From the NCBI RefSeq assembly GCF_964355755.1, contig NC_092680.1, positions 4,007,001-4,071,000 of the forward strand: 64,000 bases of DNA. The letters are read 5' to 3'. The notes beneath the pieces were generated by a model, which did not search any database, was not told the DNA's origin, and saw only the letters and a program-made list of their open reading frames with translations. Positions 33,447-34,581 of this stretch are shown piece after piece. Origin of the DNA: Antedon mediterranea (Eukaryota > Echinodermata > Crinoidea > Comatulida > Antedonidae). The position numbers and the translations under genes are program-made. Every line of letters starts with the position of its first letter. The stretch's first letter is position 1.

Positions 33447-34581
33447 ATGGGGAACAAAGAAAGTGCAATAGCTGATAACAATGCTGGTTTCCATGACGAT
33501 GGGAATACAACACTTACCATATCAGCGTCTGGAGTGTCAAAGACTAGAAAGCAAAAACAAAAGGGTGCACAACGACAAAAAGGTAAACGACAACCGCCCG
33601 AAGAGATAATGATAGACCGAGACGGAACCGAACCACCGGTCCCTGTCACGGAAATCACTGTGCAAGGTGAGAATGACGGCACGCATGTTGCGAATGACGA
33701 CATTCATCTTGAGCATGACGACACGCATCTTGAGCATGATAACAAGAATGTTGTGGATGACGAAACGCATACTGAGCATGATGGAACGCATGCTGCCGAT
33801 GATGACACTCATCTGGAGAATGATAGTGGAACGCATGTTGCGGATGACGACACTCATCTTGAGCGTGATGAAACATATTCTGCTGATGACGACACTCATA
33901 TTGAGCATGATGGAGGAACGCATCCTGCGGATGACGAAACTCATCTTGAGAATGATGGAATGCATGTTGCAGATGACGATACTCATCTTGAGCGTGATGG
34001 AACATTTGCTGCGGATGACGACACTCATCTTGAGAATAATGGAACGCATGTTGCAGATGACGACACTCACCTTGACCGTGATGGAACGCATGTTGCAGAT
34101 GACGACACTCATCATGAGCATGGTGTAACGCATGTTGTGGATGACGACGCTCATCTGGAGCATGATAGAACGCATGTTGCGGATGACGACGCTCATCTGG
34201 AGCATGATAGAACGCATGTTGCGGATGACGACACTCATTTTAAACATGGTGATACACACCTTAATGATGACGACACTCTTCAGGTTCGAAACAATGACCT
34301 TATGGATGACAAAACAGAAATTGAAGTTCACGACACTGACTTTGAAAATAGCAAAACGCATCTTCAGAGTGACAAAACGCATCTTCAATTCGTTGACAAT
34401 CACTTCAAGAATGACGAAACACAGCTTAAGGATGACGTCACGCATCGGCATGCAGACATTCCACCTGCCCTTCCTCCACCACTTCTTCCACCTAAAAAGA
34501 AATCACGTATTCATTCTATTAAAATACATTATCCATTTACTTCTACTAAATGGCATGCTACTCATTCTAAACTAACTGAAG
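33447..34581 (+). CDS. SFK coding exon 1: myristoylation signal, Asp/His repeats, Pro-rich linker
   Basis: Acceptor tttcttttcag ends at 33431; ATG at 33447 in the context agccATGg. It encodes residues 1-378 plus one base and ends before gtaata at 34582. The core is a 42-bp tandem repeat translating to 14 residues, typically [14 protein letters not shown], with about 14 clear copies and degenerate ones on both sides. The repeat length is a multiple of three and there is no stop in frame, so it reads as protein. No cysteine follows Gly2, so palmitoylation there is not expected. Confidence 0.85.

What the first reader, a model, noticed from the sequence alone, without database searches (positions are those of the whole stretch)
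33447..34581. Src-family kinase with a long Asp/Thr/His repeat domain in place of the usual short unique region
Seen: one exon starts with a normal myristoylation signal (MGNKES), then carries about 14 clear copies (more if degenerate ones count) of a 14-residue unit such as [14 protein letters not shown], and joins in frame to SH3, SH2 and kinase exons. The unit is exactly 42 bp and in-frame indels are kept to whole codons. Known Src-family unique regions are about 60-90 residues and not repetitive. Inference: a strongly acidic, His-rich membrane-proximal repeat could bind divalent metal ions or change conformation with pH, which would couple ion signals to a tyrosine kinase. I know of no described Src-family member like this.
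Basis: partly seen in the sequence, partly recalled or inferred. Interest (0 to 1): 0.75.

Follow-up and report, generated by a model that had tools for sequence, protein, structure and literature searches.

The report
Src kinase with optional acidic repeat
An animal Src-type signalling kinase gene carries, right before its SH3 domain, about 37 seven-residue Asp/Thr/His repeats that are probably translated, but earlier splice sites in the same reading frame would leave them out and give an ordinary Src, so only transcript data can settle it.

Summary
The open frame and the repeat are real. Exon 1 (33447-34581) joins ten further exons with GT-AG borders into an intact 824-residue SH3-SH2-kinase of Src type (607 bits to SRC, at most 393 to ABL1 among the rows shown). 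The repeat is finer than described: about 37 heptads ([D/G]-T-H-[V/L]-x-x-D, residues 78-338), amplified in the centre as 42-bp dimers. A DNA search of the genome found the array only here. Three relatives whose N-terminus I could read have short unique regions (44-81 residues).

Exon 1 holds two internal splice donors in the same phase (33583, 33667), both scoring above the far donor (34582); either would leave an ordinary 491- or 519-residue Src without the repeat. And a class II SH3-ligand motif (PLLPPK) sits 34 residues before the SH3 domain.

For translation: all five length changes between repeats keep the frame, unlike the gene's intronic 60-bp array. Against: silent change is not in significant excess, and that intronic array also scores as codon-like. 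I put 0.65 on translation in at least one isoform, 0.30 on a purely intronic minisatellite. Metal or pH sensing is untested. New variant of a known kind, of moderate interest.

The parts
33430..33431 (+). splice acceptor AG (TTTCTTTTCAG) 15 nt before the start codon: suggests an upstream 5' UTR exon or spliced leader
   Evidence: relatives A and C have an acceptor-like AG at a like place before their ATG
33447..33666 (+). first coding exon, short form: MGNKES myristoylation signal, ordinary-length unique region (73 residues, phase 1)
   Evidence: phase and place of the junction before SH3 match relative A
33540..33590 (+). basic patch [17 protein letters not shown] (residues 32-48), candidate membrane-lipid contact
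   Evidence: sequence; function inferred
33583..33588 (+). internal splice donor AAG|GTAAAC, phase 1 (gives a 491-residue kinase)
33667..33672 (+). internal splice donor AAG|GTGAGA, phase 1, 11 nt before the repeat (gives a 519-residue kinase)
   Evidence: same nine bases as the donor after 37505
33447..34581 (+). first coding exon, long form (378 residues + 1 base)
33678..34250 (+). core repeat, residues 78-268: 27 heptads, mostly as 42-bp dimers [14 protein letters not shown]
34251..34460 (+). degenerate heptads, residues 269-338 (10 units)
34461..34502 (+). [14 protein letters not shown] (residues 339-352) with class II SH3-ligand motif PLLPPK (345-350)
   Evidence: motif definition recalled
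34582..34587 (+). far splice donor AAG|GTAATA, phase 1, long form; stop codon of the open frame follows at 34590
35276..35869 (+). SH3 domain, two exons (35276-35369, 35771-35869)
36185..36879 (+). SH2 domain, two exons (36185-36288, 36730-36879)
37350..43474 (+). SH2-kinase linker, kinase domain and tail, six exons; tail ends EAQYQ-stop
42300..42803 (+). intronic 60-bp minisatellite of the same gene, used as control for the repeat

Best explanation
The gene makes a catalytically complete, myristoylated Src-family kinase. In its long form the unique region holds an ordinary SH4/basic start, then about 260 disordered, strongly negative residues made of T-H-[VL]-x-x-D heptads, then a basic stretch with a class II proline motif just before SH3. 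[quoted passage not shown] Occupancy of the SH3 by PLLPPK would loosen the SH3-linker clamp, as the proline-rich region is thought to do in Tec kinases. Protonation of His, metal ions or Thr phosphorylation would change the charge and so tune it. In-phase internal donors would allow splicing to an ordinary Src without the module. Shown: gene structure by homology and splice signals, domains, repeat, donors, motif, charge by computation. Inferred: translation of the repeat, both isoforms, disorder, every step of the regulation.
For: Intact gene, 11 exons, all ten introns GT-AG, one frame. SH3, SH2 and kinase by Pfam. Junction between unique region and SH3 in the same phase and place as relative A. 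For translation of the repeat: 5 of 5 length changes between heptads are whole codons, while in the gene's intronic 60-bp array two of seven spacings are one base short; codon log-odds of residues 276-378 are 0.179 per codon (coding windows 0.03 to 0.31, non-coding -0.29 to -0.04, 5th to 95th percentile), and the other two + frames are -0.20 and -0.16; 3.9% of 645 intronic or intergenic 141-nt windows are open in a given frame, 7.8% of the 192 with GC of 0.36 or more. AlphaFold2 on exon 1 alone gave mean pLDDT 46.2, pTM 0.16, as expected of disorder. Charge blocks and the single PxxPx[KR] motif. Precedent: SH4-unique-SH3 fuzzy complex with an electrostatic component (PMC10304449, abstract and passages); isoform splicing within Lyn's unique domain changes that complex (PMC6278449, passages); BTK proline-rich region invoked in displacing SH3 (PMC8260988, passages).
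Against: No transcript was available. Both internal donors score above the far one (33 and 29 of 49 hand-picked donors score at or below them, against 15 of 49). Copies show no significant excess of silent change: 11 of 35 distinct substitutions silent against 7.8 expected, P 0.11; all 56, 16 against 13.1, P 0.18; degenerate units 16 of 64 against 12.0, P 0.12, and 31 residues kept against 29.9 by chance, P 0.40. Zero stops is uninformative in the 12 central dimers (0.5 expected) and barely so in the degenerate units (about 2 expected, P 0.11-0.13). Codon scores discriminate poorly in arrays: the intronic 60-bp array scores 0.23-0.29 in its three + frames despite 11-14 stops, and one minus frame of 276-378 scores 0.17. 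The non-repetitive tail 339-378 scores only 0.054 per codon, at the edge of the non-coding range, and its GC (0.39, taken over 34441-34581) is reached by 16% of non-coding windows. SH3 binding was not modelled. A single-sequence AlphaFold2 run is weak evidence of disorder, and DSSP returned nothing for the model.
Confidence: 0.4

Rival explanations
1. The repeat is an intronic minisatellite. The true first coding exon ends at 33582 or 33666, the kinase is an ordinary 491- or 519-residue Src, and the open frame across the array is an accident of a 42-bp unit that is a multiple of three and poor in stops.
For: Two consensus donors in the right phase before the array, both scoring better than the far donor. 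Resulting unique region of 45 or 73 residues, like relatives (44, 54, 81) and the 50-90 quoted for the family (PMC4075076, introduction). The same gene has an intronic 60-bp array that also scores as codon-like. Codon-position diversity among copies is flat: 0.189, 0.196, 0.198. Two other frames of the stretch have only 2 stops each.
Against: All five length changes keep the frame although the intronic array does not; the tail after the repeat stays open and ends at an in-phase donor 8 nt before its stop; an SH3-ligand motif lies just before an SH3 domain.
Confidence: 0.3
2. The repeat is translated but does nothing specific: a slippage-expanded, neutrally drifting acidic spacer tolerated because Src unique regions are disordered.
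For: Silent and replacement changes among copies fit random placement; two adjacent 42-mers are identical, so the array probably still turns over; a DNA search found the array at this locus only.
Against: Asp6, Asp7 and His10 of the 14-residue unit are unchanged in 12 of 12 dimers, position 8 is D or E in 12 of 12; Thr is as common and Asp and His still common in the degenerate part 276-335 (Thr 0.117 against 0.120; Asp 0.183 against 0.265; His 0.100 against 0.170).
Confidence: 0.2
3. [quoted passage not shown]
For: Make-up (31.8% acidic, 15.3% His; [quoted passage not shown] PMC6171002, passages). Computed charge goes from -67.5 to -36.7 between pH 7.4 and 5.5. The Lck unique domain associates with CD4/CD8alpha through a zinc clasp (PMC4075076, introduction).
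Against: No match to the EF-hand-like pattern tried and no significant excess of HxxH over shuffles; no Pfam match of exon 1 above cut-off (best E 0.11) and no PDB match at E up to 1; nothing measured. Cytosolic Ca2+ is low for a low-affinity binder (general knowledge).
Confidence: 0.1

Closest known systems
Vertebrate Src-family kinases (SRC, FGR, HCK, LYN)
   Same: Myristoylation signal, basic patch, SH3-SH2-kinase, activation-loop Tyr, tail Tyr in QYQ; 59.5% identity to SRC, 57.2% to HCK over the folded part
   Different: Unique region 378 residues with a heptad repeat in the long form, against 50-90 (PMC4075076); HRDLAARN instead of the HRDLRAAN of SRC and HCK; tail stops right after QYQ
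LynA/LynB isoforms
   Same: In-frame alternative splicing inside the disordered unique domain (PMC6278449, passages)
   Different: Lyn's optional segment is 21 residues; here 305 or 333 codons of mostly repeat, and both isoforms are only predicted
Proline-rich region of Tec kinases (BTK, ITK)
   Same: SH3 ligand just N-terminal of the kinase's own SH3 (PMC8260988, passages)
   Different: No PH/TH domain here; Src-type tail Tyr kept; the SH3 contact is inferred from a motif alone
[quoted passage not shown]
   Same: Tandem repeats rich in acidic residues and His, similar composition (PMC6171002, passages)
   Different: HRC is a sarcoplasmic-reticulum protein with 29-residue units; likeness is of composition, no alignment to HRC was made
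Src-type relatives A, C and FRK-like D in the same genome
   Same: Same domains; A and D have HRDLAARN; in A the intron before SH3 has the same place and phase
   Different: Unique regions of 54, 44 and 81 residues without repeats; C has HCDLAARN and may be a failing copy; the label FRK-like is by recall

Membership tests
Src-family kinase | SH3-SH2-tyrosine kinase order | tested here: met
   Pfam SH3_1 383-429, SH2 444-526, PK_Tyr_Ser-Thr 563-811
Src-family kinase | Closer to SRC than to ABL | tested here: met
   607 bits to SRC, 592 FGR, 578 HCK, at most 393 ABL1 in the 60 of 3173 matched sequences shown. The 8-row tree has a single Abl row, so it cannot test this split; the place of the gene among the seven Src-type rows is unresolved there
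Src-family kinase | N-terminal Met-Gly with myristoylation signal | tested here: met
   MGNKES fits the recalled consensus used; no myristoylation was measured
Src-family kinase | Catalytic residues and activation-loop Tyr | tested here: met
   GNGQFG 570, VAVK 588, HRD 681, DFG 701, DTEY 709-712, APE 726
Src-family kinase | C-terminal regulatory Tyr | tested here: met
   EAQYQ at 820-824, aligned to SRC tail QYQ; residues after it are missing
Src-family kinase | HRDLRAAN catalytic loop of vertebrate members | tested here: not met
   HRDLAARN; relatives A, B and D in this genome have HRDLAARN too and C has HCDLAARN, so it does not set this gene apart; that the vertebrate form is diagnostic is recalled
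Src-family kinase | Unique region of 50-90 residues | tested here: inconclusive
   378 in the long form, 45 or 73 if an internal donor is used; family range from PMC4075076
Tec kinase (works like, not a member) | PH and TH domains | tested here: not met
   no such Pfam match in 824 residues at E up to 1
Tec kinase (works like, not a member) | SH3 ligand before SH3 that binds in cis | tested here: inconclusive
   one PxxPx[KR] motif at 345-350; binding not testable here

The most novel reading that the evidence does not exclude
A Src-family kinase that can splice in or leave out a 305-codon polyanionic, His-rich repeat module with its own SH3 ligand, turning a standard Src into one whose membrane reach and SH3 clamp depend on pH, divalent ions or multisite phosphorylation.
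Probability: 0.12. Interest if true: 0.7.

Novelty: new variant of a known kind. Interest (0 to 1): 0.42.

Why it matters
The disordered unique region is the least understood part of Src kinases. A natural form in which it is extended about five-fold by a regular charged repeat next to an SH3 ligand, with in-phase donors that could remove it, would be a ready-made test of how charge and length of this region set kinase activity. If the repeat proves intronic, the case is a warning that open tandem arrays beside exons look like protein.

Tried and rejected
Other genes with the repeat: the protein search of exon 1 against the own genome gave 36 matches at E up to 0.01, the gene itself and 35 weaker ones (best 4.8e-15). 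Of the others I read two places: the Thr/Ser-rich 1089-residue frame on C5 (which accounts for several rows, the best among them) and a 21-bp STHKDDD array on C2 (48% identity); both look like unrelated low-complexity sequence. The rest, C1:35680450 (E 3.8e-14, 16% identity) included, were not read. A DNA search of the array found only this locus; that search skips simple repeats and very common words.

Coiled coil or solenoid from the heptad: not favoured; mostly one hydrophobic residue per heptad, and no confident fold in a single-sequence AlphaFold2 model (1 of 378 residues with pLDDT of 70 or more). DSSP gave nothing for that model, so secondary structure was not assessed.

CK2 array and HxxH zinc sites as selected motifs: counts are within shuffles of the same composition (287 and 423 of 2000 shuffles reach them).

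Another first exon: of 15 ATGGG sites in 23000-35275, only the one at 33447 opens into a phase-1 donor of the patterns scanned. That scan did not include GTAAAC, so site 33583 came out only. A tiny ATGGGAAAAAG|GTAAGT at 35128 is in the wrong phase (read by eye).

Identity of the animal: the SSU rRNA search failed twice, COX1 gave no match; left open. Orthologues in other animals: no relatives are held. The prokaryote, viral and metagenome collections were not scanned.

The first donor table (48 donors) held one mistyped site (GTAATA for GTAATT in relative A); corrected (49 donors, with the same site of C added). Donors were picked by hand with the phase as a guide, and a few (relative D) are uncertain. 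The first run of the frame control failed on stops (division by zero) and was replaced. N-terminal exon of relative B: not found in 18106000-18113000. The prokaryotic promoter/terminator scan is of no use here and was set aside.

Full report
What is there. The window lies at C11:4007001-4071000 of an unnamed 354-Mb genome in 18 contigs, an animal by its genes. Exon 1 starts at ATG 33447, 15 nt after a splice acceptor, and is open to 34589. Joined with ten further exons it gives an 824-residue protein without a stop; all ten introns are GT-AG and phases agree. Pfam finds SH3, SH2 and tyrosine kinase. The folded part matches SRC at 607 bits, FGR 592, HCK 578, ABL1 at most 393 in the 60 sequences shown. 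Catalytic landmarks, activation-loop Tyr712 and tail Tyr823 are present; the chain ends one residue after the tail Tyr. From this the kinase should be active and regulable (inference).

The repeat. Lag-7 and lag-14 identity both exceed all of 2000 shuffles, also in the degenerate part 276-340. I count 37 heptads from residue 78 to 338, 27 in the core and 10 degenerate. In 12 dimers, Asp6, Asp7 and His10 never change. Two adjacent 42-mers are identical, so the array probably still turns over. The region 78-338 is 31.8% acidic, 15.3% His and 11.9% Thr, with computed charge -67.5 at pH 7.4. A basic patch (residues 32-48) lies before it and a proline/basic stretch with one class II SH3-ligand motif (345-350) after it. 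AlphaFold2 on exon 1 alone gave mean pLDDT 46.2; DSSP returned nothing.

The catch. Exon 1 has three sites scoring 3.0 or more on a matrix of 49 donors from kinase genes of this genome, all in phase 1: 33583 (5.41), 33667 (4.75) and 34582 (3.78). The first two lie before the repeat. Splicing there to the SH3 exon gives 491 or 519 residues, about the size of an ordinary Src. The stretch 33667-34581 is 915 nt, so frame is kept either way. The repeat could therefore be part of an alternative long exon, or intronic.

Tests between these. (a) Silent against replacement change: in the 12 dimers 11 of 35 distinct substitutions are silent, null 7.8, P 0.11; counting all 56, 16 against 13.1, P 0.18. 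In ten degenerate heptads 16 of 64 are silent, null 12.0, P 0.12, and 31 residues match their consensus against 29.9 by chance, P 0.40. None is significant, and diversity in the dimers is equal at the three codon positions. (b) Stops: none seen, about 0.5 expected in the dimers and about 2 in the degenerate units; weak. (c) Length changes: two inserted codons in the core and three codon-sized changes in the degenerate part, 5 of 5 whole codons. The degenerate ones rest on an alignment made on residues, but the heptads return in frame each time. In the gene's intronic 60-bp array two of seven spacings are one base short; the 20-bp and 89-bp arrays of the window also show changes of one or two bases, though anchors there skip copies. 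This is my strongest test. (d) Coding character: residues 276-378 score 0.179 per codon, inside coding and outside non-coding windows, but one minus frame of the same stretch scores 0.17, and the intronic 60-bp array scores 0.23-0.29 in its + frames in spite of 11-14 stops, so the score discriminates poorly in arrays; the 40-residue tail alone scores 0.054, ambiguous. (e) The far donor lies 8 nt before the stop of the open frame; sites at least this good number 66 of 3489 GT on the + strand of the window, so an in-phase one in the 150 nt after the repeat would arise by chance about one time in twenty (my arithmetic). Together I put 0.65 on translation of the repeat in at least one isoform and 0.30 on a purely intronic array.

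Relatives. Other Src-type genes lie on C11. A (L003, L013), C (L005, L006) and the FRK-like D (L008, L009) start MGNC, MGNC and MGLC and have 54, 44 and 81 residues before the SH3 region, none repetitive. The first exon of B (L004, L015) was not found. In A the first intron has the same phase and place, five residues before ALYDY. In an 8-row tree only A+C and SRC+HCK were well supported; the place of the window gene among the seven Src-type rows is unresolved, and one Abl row cannot test the split from Abl. The label FRK-like rests on recalled features of the tail. A, B and D have HRDLAARN like the window gene, C has HCDLAARN.

How it may work. In Src the SH4, unique and SH3 parts form a fuzzy complex in which electrostatics matter (PMC10304449, abstract and passages). 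In Lyn, splicing of a 21-residue segment changes the contact with the SH3 RT loop (PMC6278449, passages). In BTK a proline-rich region before SH3 has been invoked in displacing SH3 from the kinase (PMC8260988, passages). By analogy I propose that the acidic repeat is an electrostatic spacer and competitor for the flanking basic stretches, and that PLLPPK engages the kinase's own SH3. All of this is inference. Metal or pH control is possible by composition, close to that of HRC (PMC6171002, passages), but untested.

Print. Searches of the open-access library for Src unique domain or region with tandem repeat, starfish, sea urchin, choanoflagellate/invertebrate and histidine-rich/acidic repeats listed 3 of 3, 15 of 136, 15 of 38, 1 of 1 and 10 of 14 papers; no title or abstract start in those listings describes such a kinase. 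This covers open-licence PubMed Central papers only, and the unlisted rows were not seen.

Verdict. A real, intact Src-family kinase gene with an unusual in-frame acidic heptad array. It is a new variant of a known kind if translated, ordinary if not.

Noticed in passing
42300-42803: 60-bp minisatellite, 8.4 copies, in the intron between kinase exons 41990-42140 and 42979-43110 of the same gene; GC 0.49 against 0.32 and 0.36 on its two sides.
   Followed up: partly
40332-41634: Non-LTR-like reverse transcriptase (PF00078, E 1.5e-28) inside the intron before exon 41990-42140; the frame ends at 41303 and an overlapping second frame runs 41233-41634.
   Followed up: partly
44615-47552: Long arrays of 89-bp and 286-bp units downstream of the kinase gene.
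   Followed up: no
18995-19903: 20-bp tandem array, 45.7 copies.
   Followed up: no
56397-58991: Myc gene on the minus strand: Myc_N (E 3.8e-29) and HLH (E 6.5e-12) exons.
   Followed up: partly
10534-11736: Minus-strand exon of a transmembrane amino acid transporter (PF01490, E 1.5e-79); with 22486-22845 (no Pfam match) perhaps a vesicular inhibitory amino acid transporter, the latter by recall only.
   Followed up: partly
358-693: Furin-like cysteine-rich repeat exon (PF15913, E 1e-14) on the + strand.
   Followed up: no
L010 220-3489: C5 holds a 1089-residue open frame of Thr/Ser-rich repeats (STTQSPSGATGIAD), mucin-like, ending in a Cys-containing stretch.
   Followed up: no
L005-L007, L016: Tandem duplicates of a Src-type kinase on C11 (15.65-15.67 Mb); the copy in L006 has changes at conserved sites (HCDLAARN, AGFLARR where DFG is expected), so it may be a failing copy.
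   Followed up: no
63120-63438: Long GAT/GATGACAATGATGAT array.
   Followed up: no
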